This document shows positions 634-33,877 of a stretch of 33,877 nucleotides of DNA, piece after piece. Made by a program: the position numbers and the translations under genes. Position 1 is the first letter of the stretch; each line of letters starts with the position of its first letter. This stretch comes from a virus. The stretch covers positions 1 through 33,877 of the IMG/VR virus record IMGVR_UViG_3300024520_000293; one strand, given 5' to 3'. The notes under the pieces were generated by a model. That model worked only from the letters and a program-made list of their open reading frames with translations. It was not told the origin of the DNA and did not search any database.

Positions 634-852
634 ATGATTAAGATGACAAAACTACAGAGGAAGGCCATGACCTATATTAGGGCATACCATAGCAGGTATG
701 ATAATATGCCTACTATAAGGAATATATGCCAATTTATGGGATATAAGTCTACTTACTCTGCGGTAGGATTACTTAATAGACTAGTTAAGCATGGTCACTT
801 AGAACGCATAAAGGACGGGAAGTATAGATTCTCTAGGAAACAGTGTGACTGA
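634..852 (+). CDS. stand-alone LexA-type winged-helix protein
   Basis: 72 residues that match the LexA N-terminal DNA-binding fold almost from end to end. LQRKAMTYIRAYHSRYDNMP is helix 1 and the typical turn, TIRNICQFMGYKSTYSAVGLLNRL is the helix-turn-helix, and GHLERIKDGKYRF is the wing. The LexA protease domain is absent, so it cannot self-cleave. It is likely a DNA-binding regulator of phage early genes or a competitor for host LexA sites; the target is not visible. ATG 634 is preceded by AATAGAATAAA; ATG 643 is an alternative start. The stop touches a small AT hairpin. Confidence 0.75.
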   Translation: MIKMTKLQRKAMTYIRAYHSRYDNMPTIRNICQFMGYKSTYSAVGLLNRLVKHGHLERIKDGKYRFSRKQCD

Positions 853-2841: not shown

Positions 2842-2874
2842 ATTGGCTCACTCAGACTAAACTAATTAAATAAT

Positions 2875-3000
2875 ATGAAATACGAAATTAAAATATGCAA
2901 GATAGCGAAGTCTAATAAGTGGTTTATTGATAAATTGAATGAGGAAGGAATAACTACTAATAATCCAGAAGTTAGTAGCAAATTAGTAGAAGAATTATGA
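2875..3000 (+). CDS. small hypothetical protein, 41 residues
   Basis: Starts with AATTAAATAATATG and overlaps the next gene by ATGA. The short sequence has a beta-like start (KYEIKICKIA) and an acidic helical end (SKLVEEL). No family recognised; it is supported mainly by its coupled position in the operon. Confidence 0.5.
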   Translation: MKYEIKICKIAKSNKWFIDKLNEEGITTNNPEVSSKLVEEL

Positions 3001-3137
3001 AAGCAACAGAACAACAGGCAAGATATAGGGCTATTCAATTGATCGCCAATAGAAGAGCTAGGGCTGGGGAAGATAGAGTGAAGAAAGAAGTTATGTGGCA
3101 TCTGCTTACTGAGCGTACGTATTCTTCTGTCAACTAG
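2997..3137 (+). CDS. small basic helical protein, 46 residues
   Basis: Its ATG lies in the stop of the preceding gene. The arginine-rich helix QQARYRAIQLIANRRARAGE and the later KKEVMWHLL stretch suggest nucleic-acid binding, which is inference. It is the last gene before a strong inverted repeat. Confidence 0.5.
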   Translation: MKATEQQARYRAIQLIANRRARAGEDRVKKEVMWHLLTERTYSSVN

Positions 3138-3140
3138 TAA

Positions 3141-3162
3141 TTTTGGTTTTTTTTAACCAAAA
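3141..3162. repeat. 8-bp perfect inverted repeat with a T6 loop
   Basis: TTTTGGTT, six T, AACCAAAA. Read from the plus strand the T-run is in the loop and not after the stem, so it is not a normal terminator; from either strand it could be an operator. A third partial copy (AACCAAA) lies about 17 bases downstream. It separates the conserved small-gene cluster from the tiny membrane peptides. Confidence 0.45.
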
Positions 3163-3204
3163 CAATGGCTTCTTTATAACCAAATAAAATGAGATAATGT
3201 ATGG

Positions 3205-3285
3205 ATGGACATAATATTAGAACATGCGGACTGCATAATAGTCGCAATAATATTCATATTGTCGTACATAGATCTAAATAACTAA
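3205..3285 (+). CDS. possible single-span membrane peptide, 26 residues
   Basis: Translates to a short polar start followed by CIIVAIIFILSYI, a plausible membrane span, then DLNN. There is no clear ribosome-binding site. Phages often carry such mini-membrane proteins, but in AT-rich DNA hydrophobic frames arise easily, so support is limited. Confidence 0.3.
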   Translation: MDIILEHADCIIVAIIFILSYIDLNN

Positions 3286-3294
3286 TATATAGCA

Positions 3295-3399
3295 ATGAAG
3301 ATAACTAAAAAGATAATCATACAATTAACAGTGTCTCTCGCTGCATTCGCAGCAGTAACACACATATTCAGTATTATAGGGTCATATATATTAATATAA
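3295..3399 (+). CDS. possible membrane peptide, 34 residues
   Basis: Basic start MKITKKIIIQ followed by LTVSLAAFAAVTHIFSIIGS and a short hydrophobic tail. Positive-inside charge plus one span make it a believable small membrane protein, in series with the peptide just upstream. No lipobox or family feature is visible. Confidence 0.4.
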   Translation: MKITKKIIIQLTVSLAAFAAVTHIFSIIGSYILI

Positions 3400-3447
3400 T
3401 ATATAGTGATCAAATATATACTTGACGATCGATCTTAAATAATCAGT

Positions 3448-3564
3448 ATGATCGATGTGAGCAGAGAAAATCCACTAACTACACCACGTAACCCATTTAC
3501 TAAGGGATCAATCAAATACACTATGTGGGAAAGACTACAGAAGACCATAGAAGATGATGAATAG
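3448..3564 (+). CDS. small hypothetical protein, 38 residues
   Basis: The frame overlaps the start of the Tat-signal gene. The core RNPFTKGSIKYTMWERLQ resembles the 'NPf..GSk.a.vfeal' pattern at the start of several short phage proteins with a helix-turn-helix character, from memory. It is truncated compared with those, so it may be a remnant or a minimal version. Confidence 0.45.
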   Translation: MIDVSRENPLTTPRNPFTKGSIKYTMWERLQKTIEDDE

Positions 3565-4025: not shown

Positions 4026-4547
4026 ATGTCATCTAATAGTGACAGCAAGAAGGAGACTGCGGTACAATTAGGACAACATAAACAAGCCATACTTTCCAGG
4101 CTACCAGGACACCATGGAAATGTATCGAATACATGTAGGTCAATGGGGATATCAAGGAATACATATTATAACTATTGTCTTGATGACCCGGCATTCAAGG
4201 AAGCTGCTGAATTAGCTATCATTGAAGGTAGAGAATCCAAATTAGACCTAGTAGAAGATGCTATACTCACATCTGCATTAGGATCTAAGGTTAAGGAGGA
4301 GAACGAAGATGGTGACATGGTAGACACAGAGGAATGGTTAACTAAGCCTAATGTCATCGCTCAGCTATTCATACTCAAGTGCCAGGGCAAGCATAGAGGT
4401 TATAGGGAAGGTGAAGCTCCTCCACCTCCACCTCCTTCAGATGAGGATAAGCCTGAGGCTAAGGACGGTATTAGAGAGGTATTAGATGAATACTTTAAGG
4501 AAATGAAGAATGCAGACAAGACAACAACTAAACCAGAGAAGGAGTAA
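4026..4547 (+). CDS. HTH protein, small-terminase-like
   Basis: 173 residues. An N-terminal helix-turn-helix (about residues 15-60: ILSRLPGHHGNVSNTCRSMG, ISRNTYYNYCLDDPAFKEA) is followed by a helical pair (SKLDLVEDAILTSALGS) and a polymer-like segment KCQGKHRGYREG, then a Pro6 run and an acidic end. This is the arrangement of phage small-terminase-like proteins: HTH that selects the packaging site, oligomerising helices, a charged tail. Against this, the large terminase lies 3.7 kb downstream; the pair is normally adjacent. A transcription regulator is the alternative. Confidence 0.6.
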   Translation: MSSNSDSKKETAVQLGQHKQAILSRLPGHHGNVSNTCRSMGISRNTYYNYCLDDPAFKEAAELAIIEGRESKLDLVEDAILTSALGSKVKEENEDGDMVDTEEWLTKPNVIAQLFILKCQGKHRGYREGEAPPPPPPSDEDKPEAKDGIREVLDEYFKEMKNADKTTTKPEKE

Positions 4548-4549
4548 TA

Positions 4550-4846
4550 ATGACTAAGATAACGATAACTAATAAGGATAAACCAACGCCATCAGAACCA
4601 GAGGCATTGAAGCCCGGTATGATGTTTGTGCATAATGATGATAGCGATGCAATATATATAATATCTCATGCCGACTCCACTGAATCTAATGAATATATTC
4701 TCGCATGCCTGGACGGCGTACCATATAGTTCTGGCCCAGAGGATGAAATAGAGAAGGTATTCGAAGGCGATAGAGATCACTTCACCCTCATCAAATCCAT
4801 CGATATTCAATACTCAACCAGGACAGTAATACACACACAGCTATAA
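4550..4846 (+). CDS. hypothetical protein, 98 residues
   Basis: Starts after GAGAAGGAGTAATA, a good ribosome-binding site, two bases beyond the preceding stop. It is acidic, with a small beta domain feel: LKPGMMFVHNDDSDAIYIIS, YILACLDGVPYSSGPEDEIE, FTLIKSIDI. That order (a 'PG..f.....d..y.l' strand set) is common in small phage proteins but I cannot name a family. It is the last gene before the hairpin-rich gap, so its transcript probably runs into that region. Confidence 0.65.
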   Translation: MTKITITNKDKPTPSEPEALKPGMMFVHNDDSDAIYIISHADSTESNEYILACLDGVPYSSGPEDEIEKVFEGDRDHFTLIKSIDIQYSTRTVIHTQL

Positions 4847-4968
4847 GGAGAGTATATAATACCATAGAGAGACTACTACTATCGCGCGTAGCGCGTATTA
4901 ATACTATACTTCTATAGTTATTACATATAACTACTCTAGATAATTGGTAAGCAATAGTACTATAGAAT

Positions 4969-5011
4969 AATAATGAAAAGATTAGACATTAATAATGAAA
5001 AGATTAGACAT
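4969..5011 (+). repeat. 22-bp direct repeat, two adjacent copies
   Basis: Two head-to-tail copies of a unit starting AATAATGAAAAGATTAGAC. The first copy is 4969-4990; the second runs from 4991 and breaks off at 5011. Twenty-two bases is two helical turns and a common iteron length. Each copy contains an ATG but no open frame of note. Confidence 0.75.
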
Positions 5012-5089
5012 AACGATAATTATGCGTGAATACGTTCACTAATATACTGATGTTCAATACTATACATAATATCACTACTACTATACATA

Positions 5090-5105
5090 AGCGCACTAGT
5101 GCGCT
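5090..5105. repeat. 16-bp perfect palindrome
   Basis: AGCGCACTAGTGCGCT reads the same on both strands. It is GC-rich inside AT-rich DNA and has a central CTAG. It could bind a dimeric protein or extrude as a cruciform. The same central ACTAGT recurs at about 5131-5136. Confidence 0.7.
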
Positions 5106-5141
5106 ATTATACACTACTATACTAATGTATACTAGTGAACA

Positions 5142-5153
5142 GGGGGGTGGGGG
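5142..5153 (+). other. G-tract, G6-T-G5
   Basis: Twelve bases, eleven of them G, in a region otherwise strongly A+T. Purine tracts of this kind can stall polymerases or take part in G-quadruplexes; only two G-runs are present, so an intramolecular quadruplex is unlikely. Confidence 0.6.
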
Positions 5154-5160
5154 TAGTCGA

Positions 5161-5180
5161 ATATTCATCTATCTGAATAT
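5161..5180. repeat. 7-bp inverted repeat
   Basis: ATATTCA, six loop bases, TGAATAT, perfect arms, placed eight bases after the G-tract. It ends the hairpin series of the non-coding region. Confidence 0.5.
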
Positions 5181-5263
5181 GGCGACCGATAACAGCACAT
5201 AAAATTTATTAATATAAAACGTTACTATATAATACGCTATGAGAAATATAAGGAGAGAATATA

Positions 5264-5323
5264 ATGCCTAAGGAGAAGAGAGGACATCAGAGGACAATTA
5301 ATATAACAAATACGACATTATGA
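5264..5323 (+). CDS. possible 19-residue leader peptide
   Basis: ATG with an excellent AAGGAGAGAATATA leader opens a basic 19-codon frame that ends in ATGA with the next gene. It may exist only to bring ribosomes to the downstream gene. Confidence 0.35.
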   Translation: MPKEKRGHQRTINITNTTL

Positions 5324-8237: not shown

Positions 8238-9902
8238 ATGATATATAAGGGGAAGGAGATTAATAGCGTCCAGGATCTTTTCCACTGGGCGAAACACCCG
8301 ATATTGCCCGTGCCTACGATGGAATACATCAATGAGCAGGGCTGGGGCGTAGATGAAATCGTAGACTATTATGAGAAGAGGGAGCTCGCGATAAAGCGAG
8401 AGGCCGATGATCCTTACCGGTTCGGATTTGAGCTCCCTCACTGGAAGATATTAGATCGGTTGATAAACGAGGGAGCCACAGAGGTTTTATTGATGGGTGG
8501 CAATAGATCGTCGAAGACAGAAGTCTGTGCTAAGCAAGTAGTTAGGTCATTGGTCGAGAATCCTAATTCTATCATATGGTGTTTCCAGACGACCTACGAG
8601 AACTCCATACAAATGCAACAGAAGGCTATCTATAAGTATCTGCCGAAGGAATTAAAGGAGACTCAGCGCGGGAAGATCGGATATATCTCATATACACAGA
8701 AAAGGGGATTCTCTGACGCTAAGTTTGTGCTTCCAAATGGATCTGAGTGCATATTCCGCAATTACTCCCAGGATGTAAGCACGATTGAGGGTGGTGAAAT
8801 TGGTTGCATAAATCCAACTGAGGATCAGGAAAATGTCCATAACATAGGCTTCTGGGCAGATGAGCTTATCCCACAGGACTTCCTTGATACACTTAGATTT
8901 CGCCTAGTGACTCGTAATGCGGTCGGATTAATATCATTTACTGCGATCGAAGGTTATACTCCTGTAGTAAGAGAGTTTTTGTCTGGAGCCAGGACTTTAG
9001 AGGATAAAGAGGCTGAGCTATTACCCGGTCGAAGAGTCCCGATCATCCAACAGCCAAAGCGATCTGATTCAAAAATAATATATTTTCACACCGCAGATAA
9101 TCCTTATGGAGGATTTGAGCGGATAAAGAAAACGCTCGCAGGGGCTCCAAAGGATGAGATTCTATGTCGCGCATACGGCGTACCAGAGAGGCCAATGGCA
9201 GGGAAGTTTCCCAAATTCTCTCACAAATACAACGTAGTAGAGCACGACAAGATACCATTCATCAAAGACAGGACACAGATAGTCACGCATTACCAGGTAA
9301 TAGACCCTGCTGGGTCTAAGCCATGGTTTATGATCTGGCTAGCCGTAACTCCGTTAGATGAGATCTATGTATGGGCCGAGTACCCAGACTCAATGTACGG
9401 AGATTGGGCTGATATGGCTAAGGGGAAAAAAGGGAGGCCGGGTGATGCCGCGAAGCCCAACGGGAACGGATACCAGGATTATATTGAGATAATGGAGGAC
9501 ATCGATGGCGACATAAATGTATTTGAGCGTATTATCGACCCCAGACTAGGGGCTACCAAGTTCCAAAAAGAAGAGATGACTACAGATATGATCAATGAGC
9601 TATCCTTGTTAGGGATAGATACTGTCCCGGCTCCTGGGTGGGACGAAGAGACAGGTATCCAAGCAATCAATAAATGGCTGGCATGGGACGACAGGAAAGA
9701 AATGCAGCTAGGGAATAAGCCTCGGCTGTTTATCTCGGATAGATGCGAGAATCTTATCTATGCGATGACCGAATATACGGGCTTGTTGGGTAAGGATGAA
9801 CCATGCAAAGATCCGATTGACGTTTTGCGTTATGCAGCAGTTTGCGATATTTTATACGTAAATGAGAAAGAATCTAACTATTTTGCGAATAGAGGACGGT
9901 AA
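8238..9902 (+). CDS. terL: terminase large subunit
   Basis: The ATP-driven motor and nuclease that packages phage DNA into the prohead. In 554 residues the ATPase half shows the Walker A GGNRSSKT (residues 87-94), Walker B FWADE (205-209, catalytic E209) and a coupling strand LISFTAIEG (231-239). The nuclease half has the RNase H-like acidic triad: VIDPAGS (D356), RIIDPRLGA (D434) and KDPIDVLRY (near D526). The length fits the family. There is no tape-measure gene, and the portal follows after 64 bases, separated by a promoter. Start ATG 8238 is one base after the HTH gene. Confidence 0.93.
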   Translation: MIYKGKEINSVQDLFHWAKHPILPVPTMEYINEQGWGVDEIVDYYEKRELAIKREADDPYRFGFELPHWKILDRLINEGATEVLLMGGNRSSKTEVCAKQVVRSLVENPNSIIWCFQTTYENSIQMQQKAIYKYLPKELKETQRGKIGYISYTQKRGFSDAKFVLPNGSECIFRNYSQDVSTIEGGEIGCINPTEDQENVHNIGFWADELIPQDFLDTLRFRLVTRNAVGLISFTAIEGYTPVVREFLSGARTLEDKEAELLPGRRVPIIQQPKRSDSKIIYFHTADNPYGGFERIKKTLAGAPKDEILCRAYGVPERPMAGKFPKFSHKYNVVEHDKIPFIKDRTQIVTHYQVIDPAGSKPWFMIWLAVTPLDEIYVWAEYPDSMYGDWADMAKGKKGRPGDAAKPNGNGYQDYIEIMEDIDGDINVFERIIDPRLGATKFQKEEMTTDMINELSLLGIDTVPAPGWDEETGIQAINKWLAWDDRKEMQLGNKPRLFISDRCENLIYAMTEYTGLLGKDEPCKDPIDVLRYAAVCDILYVNEKESNYFANRGR

Positions 9903-23708: not shown

Positions 23709-24371
23709 ATGAGTACAACAATTTCAATCACTCCAGGGAGAACTTGGGCTAATGGCGAGACTGTAACAGCAGCTAAATTAAACTGCATTTGGACTGATGC
23801 CACAATAGCATCAAGCGACATCATCCCTGTTGGGTCTATCATGCCGTCATTCGACACTACAGCTCCAACGGGTTATGTTTTCCTCGCTGGAAAGACATTA
23901 GGTAATGCTGCGTCAGGTGCGACTGAGAGGGCTAACGCTGATTGCGAAGAATTATTTGAAAAACTATGGGATAATTTAGCAGACTCTGAGGCTGCCGTAT
24001 CAGGTGGTCGCGGAGCTAGCGCACAGGCCGACTTTGACGCAGACAAGACAATTACATTACCGGACGCAAGAGGAAGGGCGTTTGCGGGGCTAGATACTAT
24101 GTCTAGTACTGCTAGTGCAAATAGATTAACATCTGCGGGTGGCGTCGATGGAGATGTATTAGGCGATACAGGCGGAGTTGAGACTATCTCTATTGGAGCT
24201 ATCACTATAGCGAACCAAGCGGCTAATGCTGATATTGGAGCAGGTGCAAATTTTGACGGCGTTGTGAATGCAACAGGATACAAATTCAGTCTCGCAGTGA
24301 CAGGTGGAGATGCGAGGACAGAAGTAAATGTCCAGCCCACAATGATTTCAACCTTTATCATTAAATTATAA
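23709..24371 (+). CDS. tail fibre / collar domain protein
   Basis: 220 residues with a phage tail collar domain (Pfam Collar). The IPVGSIMPSFDTTAPTGYVF L segment leads to FEKLWDNL and ITLPDARGRAFAGLD, the exact order of the family; residues about 40-130. The short N-terminal part RTWANGETVTAAKLNCIWTD is the common anchor before collar domains. It ends in VQPTMISTFIIKL, the usual last strand. Probably a short fibre that contacts the host surface. Gap of three bases after the nozzle protein; the next gene overlaps its last base. Confidence 0.85.
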   Translation: MSTTISITPGRTWANGETVTAAKLNCIWTDATIASSDIIPVGSIMPSFDTTAPTGYVFLAGKTLGNAASGATERANADCEELFEKLWDNLADSEAAVSGGRGASAQADFDADKTITLPDARGRAFAGLDTMSSTASANRLTSAGGVDGDVLGDTGGVETISIGAITIANQAANADIGAGANFDGVVNATGYKFSLAVTGGDARTEVNVQPTMISTFIIKL

Positions 24372-24661
24372 TGGGCATAACAGACATACAGAGAAAAAAA
24401 GAATTACCTCAATTTAGCTGTAATCAGTGCGGTCTATGCTGCGTGGATGTGACTAATGTTGACCTGCCCAGTAAAGAGAAATCGAAAGAATGCTTGTTCT
24501 TAAATCAAGACAGGAGTTGTAGGATTTATGACATGAGGCCGGACTTCTGTAGTGTAAATAGATCTTATCATCTTAATAATGAAAATATGAATATAATGGA
24601 ATGGCATAACATTAATTATCGGTCTTGTGATAAATTAAAAATGGAGGAATCTGAATTATGA
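24371..24661 (+). CDS. YkgJ-family cysteine-cluster protein
   Basis: 96 residues. Cysteine pattern FSCNQCGLCC (C17, C20, C23, C24), then ECLFL (C41), CRIYDMRPDFC (C50, C60) and C85, with the RP between the last pair. That spacing is the YkgJ-type CxxCxxCC cluster, proposed to hold zinc or an iron-sulfur cluster; the role is unknown, even in bacteria. It is not a normal virion protein yet sits between fibre and internal virion genes, tied to both by overlapping codons. It could mature or modify a virion protein (inference). Confidence 0.8.
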   Translation: MGITDIQRKKELPQFSCNQCGLCCVDVTNVDLPSKEKSKECLFLNQDRSCRIYDMRPDFCSVNRSYHLNNENMNIMEWHNINYRSCDKLKMEESEL

Positions 24662-33592: not shown

Positions 33593-33877
33593 TTATTCTT
33601 TAATTACCCGTACGCCATCGCCATAGCCAGAGCCAGAGCTAGAGCCATAGCCAGAGCCATAGCCAGAGCCATAGCCAGAGCCATAGCCATAGCCAGAGCC
33701 AGAGCCATAGCCATAGCCATAGCCATCGCCAGAGCCATAGCCATAGCCAGAGCCAGAGCCATCGCCATCGCCATCGCCAGAGCCAGAGCCATAGCCAGAG
33801 CCAGAGCCATAGCCATAGCCATAGCCATCGCCATAGCCATAGCCATAGCCAGAGCCAGAGCCATCGCCAGAGCCATC
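33593..33877 (-). CDS. glycine-repeat protein, 5' end cut by the window
   Basis: Open from the window edge for 94 codons to TAA at 33593. It reads G-x-G-x throughout with x = Y, S or D (GSGYGSSSGSGYGDG near its end), closing in GVRVIKE. All three minus-strand frames of the repeat are stop-free; I choose this one because G-[YSD] repeats occur in phage proteins, while the Met/Ala/Leu and Trp/Leu readings do not resemble proteins I know. The N-terminal part is outside. It starts the minus-strand operon seen here. Confidence 0.5.
   Translation of the reverse strand, partial: DGSGDGSGSGYGYGYGDGYGYGYGSGSGYGSGSGDGDGDGSGSGYGYGSGDGYGYGYGSGSGYGYGSGYGSGYGSGYGSSSGSGYGDGVRVIKE
33614..33877. repeat. 6-bp tandem repeat to the window end
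   Basis: Forty-four units of GCC followed by ATA, AGA or ATC (plus strand), with one GCT variant near 33638. The window ends inside it. Slippage-prone DNA of this kind stops short-read assembly; it is not an identified attachment site. Confidence 0.9.

What the first reader, a model, noticed from the sequence alone, without database searches (positions are those of the whole stretch)
4847..5263. Hairpin, heptamer and direct-repeat region without genes
About 415 gene-free bases hold six same-strand TACTATA copies (two of them 21 bases apart in a 12-base version), a 22-bp direct repeat, a perfect 16-bp palindrome and several hairpins. By base composition such a heptamer is expected much less than once in 330 bases (rough estimate). 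The set resembles an iteron origin or a multi-site control region, and no known feature explains it.
Basis: partly seen in the sequence, partly recalled or inferred. Interest (0 to 1): 0.75.

Follow-up and report, generated by a model that had tools for sequence, protein, structure and literature searches.

The report
Probable phage DNA-packaging start site

Summary
In detail: a 417-base gene-free gap (4847-5263) holds six TACTATA, a 21-bp spaced 12-mer, a perfect 22-bp tandem repeat and a 16-bp palindrome at the centre of a ~91-bp imperfect dyad. These features are not what relatives keep. TACTATA is absent from the gap of relative L095 and only weakly present in L007, and the palindrome is different or missing.

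What is kept lies at the right end of the gap: G6-T-G5 (5142-5153), CCGAT (5186-5190) and AAAATTT (5201-5207). A profile built only from other lineages (terminase 35-44% identical) finds this place as the single significant hit in the window (E=2.5e-4; next 0.37). In 54 related contigs with enough upstream sequence, 44 carry a G-box followed 42-56 nt later by an A-tract, always on the terminase strand (0 on the other strand; 0.2 expected in shuffles). The site is single-copy and lies beside terminase small-subunit-like genes, upstream of the large terminase.

Best reading: a terminase recognition (pac/cos-like) site of an uncultured phage group, with anatomy resembling herpesvirus pac1/pac2 and the A-tract of HK97 cos. 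Function is inferred, not shown. Rivals are a replication origin and a late-operon control element. The iteron/TACTATA origin is not supported.

The parts
5142..5153 (+). G-box GGGGGGTGGGGG; the most G-rich 13-mer of the window on either strand
   Evidence: G4-9 N(N) G4-8 box on the terL strand in 7 of 8 terminase lineages
5144..5204 (+). whole conserved module (G-box, spacer, CCGAT, A-tract)
   Evidence: profile R1 built without the window's lineage: E=2.5e-4, next best in window 0.37
5161..5180 (.). mid-spacer dyad ATATTCA-tctatc-TGAATAT; candidate region of terminase cleavage (inference)
   Evidence: stem 7, shuffle P=0.03; mid-spacer AT palindromes in several other lineages, mostly not significant one by one
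5186..5190 (+). CCGAT box, 32 nt after the G-box
   Evidence: CCGAT at +30 to +32 in window, L007, L014, L015, L100, L101 (CCGGT in L099)
5201..5207 (+). A-tract AAAATTT, 47 nt after the G-box (weaker than the A7 of other lineages)
   Evidence: other lineages A5-A9 mostly at +44 to +52
5050..5141 (.). ~91-bp imperfect dyad with 16-bp perfect palindrome 5090-5105 and three TACTATA; variable part
   Evidence: not conserved in L007 or L095
4968..5011 (+). perfect 22-bp tandem repeat TAATAATGAAAAGATTAGACAT x2; variable part
4902..5229 (+). six TACTATA heptamers (4902, 4958, 5058, 5079, 5115, 5223); the last overlaps a TATAAT-like -10 (5228-5233)
4842..4863 (+). ribosome-binding-site-like copy without a start codon (ATA instead of ATG); 20/22 identical to 5247-5268
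5264..5322 (+). first small ORF after the gap (19 aa), with SD AAGGAG, overlapping the ORF at 5320
4026..4547 (+). terminase small subunit-like gene just upstream of the gap (one small ORF between)
   Evidence: phrog_309 E=1e-6, phrog_4044 E=1.2e-5; homologue in L095 directly before its G-box
8238..9902 (+). terminase large subunit gene, 3.1 kb downstream of the G-box
   Evidence: Terminase_6N E=8e-4, below curated cut-off; homologues hit phrog_2 TerL

Best explanation
The gap carries the phage's DNA-packaging initiation site. A terminase small subunit encoded next to it would recognise the bipartite signal (G-box at one end; CCGAT and A-tract about 32 and 47 bp further on) and position the large terminase to cut in or near the variable ~48-bp spacer. 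Packaging would then start there, probably by a pac/headful mode, because assembled contigs run through the site. SHOWN: the module exists, is single-copy in the genomes scanned, always lies on the terL strand upstream of terL and beside TerS-like genes in five lineages, and keeps its spacing while the spacer sequence changes. INFERRED: that terminase binds it, where it cuts, and the pac mode. The AT-rich repeats and dyad to its left are a fast-evolving flank, possibly also holding a promoter or terminator.
For: Module (G-box plus A5 tract 42-56 nt later) in 44 of 54 loci on the + strand, 0 on the - strand, 0.2 expected in shuffles. A G-box alone is seen in 48 of 54, across 7 of 8 terminase clusters at 60% identity. 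A profile built from other lineages finds 5144-5204 as the only significant window hit, and 10 of 17 scanned records each have exactly one match. CCGAT is at the same offset in three lineages. TerS-like genes adjoin in whichever order: upstream, same strand (window, L095); downstream (C75C1, L067, L049, L031; L031 hits a TerS family at E=8e-4); upstream on the opposite strand with terL 122-220 nt downstream (L099, L101). Known parallels: the HK97 TerS site (+15 to +29 of cos) is read through one G plus an A-tract (PMC11331095); the herpesvirus junction is pac1 (C-runs around an AT core), 32 bp, cut, 32 bp, pac2 AAAAAAATTTTT (PMC10763189).
Against: No virion-end data: contig ends do not pile up at the site (two contigs, L058 and L141, begin inside the spacer, about what chance gives). 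A site upstream of the terminase/late genes could equally serve transcription or replication. The A-tract of the window lineage is weak (AAAATTT; AAATT in L007; a T-tract in L095), and so is that of L001. In the window the module is separated from terL by about ten ORFs. The TerS calls are weak for several lineages: the C75C1, L049 and L067 proteins hit no TerS family and are called only by alignment.
Confidence: 0.6

Rival explanations
1. The module is part of a replication origin. For example, a G-rich non-template strand could form an R-loop or G-quadruplex that stops a transcript and leaves a primer, as at conserved sequence block II of mitochondrial DNA, with the AT spacer as the unwinding element.
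For: G5-9 N G5 closely resembles the CSB II G-tract described as G-quadruplex forming (the exact CSB II letters are from own knowledge). The cumulative GC skew of circular phage C75C1 turns from falling to rising at its G-box (23.1 kb). The site is single-copy and non-coding.
Against: In C75C1 the skew turn coincides with the switch of gene strand, so it proves nothing; in the window there is no skew reversal. There are no conserved iterons; upstream repeats differ between lineages. Adjacency to terminase genes is not explained. The annotated replication initiation protein of C75C1 lies about 4 kb away.
Confidence: 0.16
2. The module is a transcription control element of the late (terminase/structural) operon: an activator or promoter-upstream element or a terminator.
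For: It lies 100-200 nt before the first gene of the operon in several lineages. Several C75C1-type loci have a conserved TTGACA about 24 nt after the A-tract. The window has TATAAT at 5228-5233.
Against: No common promoter follows the module in other lineages. In L014/L015 it lies 3.5-4 kb from terL. It occurs once per genome although such phages should need several control sites. No intrinsic terminator was found.
Confidence: 0.17
3. Iteron-type origin built on TACTATA.
For: Six same-strand TACTATA, two at 21-bp spacing, next to a palindrome.
Against: Heptamer and palindrome are not conserved in L007 and L095; no skew reversal; some heptamer reaches six copies in 7.6% of shuffles.
Confidence: 0.04
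4. Unselected, degenerate spacer.
For: The left 300 bases vary freely between relatives; a start-less ribosome-site copy at 4842-4863 looks like a relic.
Against: The right part is matched by a profile from other lineages at E=2.5e-4.
Confidence: 0.03

Closest known systems
cos site of HK97 (and lambda)
   Same: Lies beside terS/terL; in HK97 the small terminase reads a G and an A-tract 15-29 bp from the cut (PMC11331095). Lambda has G-rich cohesive ends and a bendable cosB (own knowledge).
   Different: Here the A-tract is ~47 bp from the G-box, the spacer sequence is free, and contigs do not end at the site, so fixed cohesive ends are not indicated.
pac sites of P22, Sf6 and SPP1
   Same: A single site in or near the TerS gene used to start headful packaging (PMC9611059); contigs run through it.
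   Different: P22 pac is a 22-bp asymmetric site inside terS; no sequence likeness. The present site is intergenic and bipartite with fixed spacing.
Herpesvirus pac1/pac2
   Same: Two elements, one a homopolymer run broken by A/T and one an A-tract (AAAAAAATTTTT), separated by a non-conserved stretch that is cut in the middle (PMC10763189).
   Different: The G-run, not the C-run, is on the strand of the A-tract; the spacing is ~48 rather than 64; a different virus lineage (though terminases are related); cleavage not shown here.
Mitochondrial conserved sequence block II
   Same: Nearly the same G-run with one interrupting base.
   Different: No evidence of transcription stop or primer formation; no single-subunit RNA polymerase found in these records (an inconclusive test because its controls did not ring).

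Membership tests
phage packaging recognition site (pac or cos) | located in or next to terminase genes | tested here: met
phage packaging recognition site (pac or cos) | one site per genome, fixed orientation | tested here: met
   (the L016-L033 group has a second G-box ~140 nt away)
phage packaging recognition site (pac or cos) | bound by the cognate small terminase | not testable with these tools
   no binding data
cos site | genome ends fall exactly at the site | tested here: inconclusive
   assembled contigs cross the site and no end cluster was seen; many samples may be cellular rather than virion DNA
pac site | headful packaging with one cut near the site and permuted ends | not testable with these tools
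   needs virion reads; C75C1 is deposited as circular, which is compatible
herpesvirus pac1/pac2 | poly-C run with A/T core, cut, A-rich pac2 on the same strand | tested here: not met
   G rather than C on the A-tract strand; works-like comparison only
iteron replication origin | conserved iterons bound by an initiator | tested here: not met
   TACTATA not conserved in L007 or L095
iteron replication origin | skew reversal or read-depth maximum at the site | tested here: inconclusive
   no reversal in the window; reversal in C75C1 confounded with gene strand; read depth not available
CSB II-type transcription stop | transcript 3' ends or RNA-DNA hybrid at the G-run | not testable with these tools
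   needs RNA data

The most novel reading that the evidence does not exclude
A widespread uncultured phage group uses a bipartite packaging signal of the herpesvirus pac1/pac2 layout, a broken homopolymer G-run and an A-tract at fixed spacing around a sequence-free cleavage zone. That would suggest that terminases of phages and herpesviruses share, or repeatedly evolve, a distance-measuring recognition mode.
Probability: 0.3. Interest if true: 0.8.

Novelty: new variant of a known kind. Interest (0 to 1): 0.6.

Why it matters
Packaging signals are known for few phages and cannot usually be seen in uncultured genomes. A recognisable, spacing-conserved signal shared by lineages with ~40% identical terminases would let packaging sites be annotated from sequence. 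It would also give a concrete cis site with which to test how small terminases of this group read DNA, which a review still calls unclear (PMC9611059), and whether phage and herpesvirus signals follow one plan. If the function turns out to be replication or transcription, it is still a strongly conserved, previously unannotated phage control element.

Tried and rejected
(1) Whole-region DNA search in phages: no match. (2) Rfam: nothing. (3) sigma-70 promoter and terminator scan: at chance level. (4) Structured RNA on the minus strand (z about -3.5) rejected as a conserved feature because L007 and L095 show none. (5) Exact pattern G6NG5-N-CCGATAACA in viral contigs found only L007; the L085/L086 hits are poly-G/poly-C tracts in unrelated contigs. 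(6) Relatives in bacterial genomes: none, so host and prophage state stay unknown. (7) Single-subunit RNA polymerase search: nothing, but its controls did not ring either. (8) cos ends at the G-box: no contig-end cluster. (9) A stem between G-box and downstream CCC was considered by eye; CCC is not universal and pairing is inconsistent. (10) Mid-spacer palindrome as a universal feature: not significant in most lineages. (11) TerL alignment against solved structures: no match. (12) Literature search for the G-run, C75C1 and G-rich packaging signals gave no prior description in the open library.

Full report
WHAT WAS CLAIMED AND WHAT IS THERE. The window is a 33,877-base linear virus record, a tailed phage by its capsid, portal and terminase genes. 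TACTATA is over-represented against shuffles of the gap (6 against 1.25, P=0.0006), but in so biased a sequence some heptamer reaches six copies in 7.6% of shuffles. The 16-bp palindrome is the centre of a longer imperfect dyad of about 91 bp. A further repeat at 4842-4863 and 5247-5268 is ribosome-binding-site context.

FINDING RELATIVES. The region itself has no DNA relative among deposited phages. The large terminase (8238-9902) led to phage C75C1 (38% identical) and, through an alignment, to 353 stretches encoding relatives in IMG/VR, of which the 80 best were kept, plus closer ones. L007 (66% identical terminase) and L095 (66%) belong to the window's own lineage and reach the gap. Both have a gene-free AT-rich stretch at the same place: L007 1-483, 3.3 kb before terL, and L095 861-1028, directly after its TerS-like gene.

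WHAT IS NOT CONSERVED. TACTATA is 2+/2- in L007 and 0 in L095. L007 has another palindrome, and none was found in L095. The minus-strand RNA folding signal of the window (z -3.65 for 5020-5145; -3.3 for the gap) is absent from L007 and L095. The heptamer, the repeats and the dyad are therefore best read as a fast-changing flank.

WHAT IS CONSERVED. In L007 and the window the right end of the gap reads G6(A/T)G5, 31-32 nt, CCGATAACARCAC. The same kind of G-box stands upstream of terL in phages with only 35-44% identical terminases. In 54 loci with at least 1.5 kb upstream, 48 have a 13-mer with 10 or more G on the terL strand. In 44 it is followed 42-56 nt later by an A5 tract; no locus has this on the other strand, and 0.2 of 54 are expected in dinucleotide shuffles. 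The offset to the A-tract is mostly 46-52 nt although the spacer differs completely between lineages. CCGAT sits at +30 to +32 in the window, L007, L014, L015, L100 and L101. The loci fall into eight clusters at 60% terminase identity, and only the singleton L012 lacks a box. An almost gapless alignment of ten modules from other lineages gave a sequence-only profile. In the window its only significant match is 5144-5204, + strand, E=2.5e-4, with the next at 0.37. Of 17 records scanned, the 10 with a match each have exactly one.

WHERE IT SITS. The module is always upstream of terL on the same strand, from 122 nt (L099) to about 4 kb (L014). It adjoins TerS-like genes whatever their order: behind them in the window (4026-4547) and L095; before them in C75C1, L067, L049 and L031; and between an opposite-strand TerS-like gene and terL in L099 and L101. 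The link to terminase genes despite rearrangement is the main argument for a packaging role.

HOW IT MOST LIKELY WORKS. A small terminase ring would bind the A-tract/CCGAT side and fix the G-box side at a set distance, so that the large terminase cuts in or near the free spacer. That a small terminase reads a G and the shape of an A-tract close to the cut is shown for HK97 (PMC11331095). In herpesviruses the concatemer is cut midway between pac1 (C-runs around an AT core) and pac2 (A-tract first), 32 bp from each in duck plague virus (PMC10763189). The layout here is similar, but with G rather than C on the A-tract strand and ~48 bp between the elements, so this is likeness of design and not membership. 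Assembled contigs pass through the site and do not end there, which favours a pac-like over a cos-like site but is weak evidence, because the samples may be cellular DNA.

RIVALS. A replication origin (including a CSB II-like R-loop) and a late-operon control element both remain possible. C75C1 shows a GC-skew turn at its G-box, but genes change strand there as well; the window shows no skew reversal. Several C75C1-type loci have a TTGACA after the A-tract, but the other lineages do not.

LIMITS. No virion-end, binding, RNA or read-depth data are available. The host is unknown: no relative was found in bacterial genomes. The window lineage has weak A-tracts. Several TerS calls rest on weak profile matches or on alignment only. 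The literature search covered open-access papers only.

VERDICT. Observation confirmed. Interpretation partly right (a control region) and partly wrong (the heptamer is not the conserved element). Most likely a packaging initiation site with an anatomy not described before for phages, as far as could be searched.

Noticed in passing
L019, L020, L026, L030 and L033, position 1: Five contigs of the L016-L033 group begin exactly at ATCAC, the second part of a repeated TACTATCAC motif found just before several genes (L031 6382 and 7868; L025 590 and 1737). Could be genome ends, transcript starts in RNA-derived contigs, or an assembly effect.
   Followed up: partly
window 33614-33876: About 44 copies of a hexamer (GCCATN) fill the right end of the record and read as an Ala-Met/Leu repeat; possibly an assembly stop or a real microsatellite.
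   Followed up: no
L001 7380-9425: The large terminase reads through an insertion of roughly 120 residues that looks like an intein, between GGNR and SSK of the ATP-binding motif.
   Followed up: no
L118 5165-5190 (MW202524.1, ctKR88): A distant podovirus has GGGTGGGGGAGGGGGGGG at the end of its annotated small terminase gene, about 110 nt before terL, but inside codons for glycine and without the A-tract; the profile does not match it.
   Followed up: partly
window 634-852: LexA-type DNA-binding protein (PF01726, E=4.5e-9) of 72 aa without a protease domain, in the left gene cluster.
   Followed up: no
window 24371-24661: Small CxxCxxCC metal-binding protein (PF03692) among the tail/structural genes.
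   Followed up: no
window 2842-3553: Another ~700-base stretch without a convincing + strand gene.
   Followed up: no
L018, L019, L022 upstream of terL: A second G-box (GGGGGGCGGGGG followed at once by TAAAAAGTTACAC) about 140 nt after the first; in L016, L018-L020 the first G-box is preceded by C-runs that could pair with it.
   Followed up: partly
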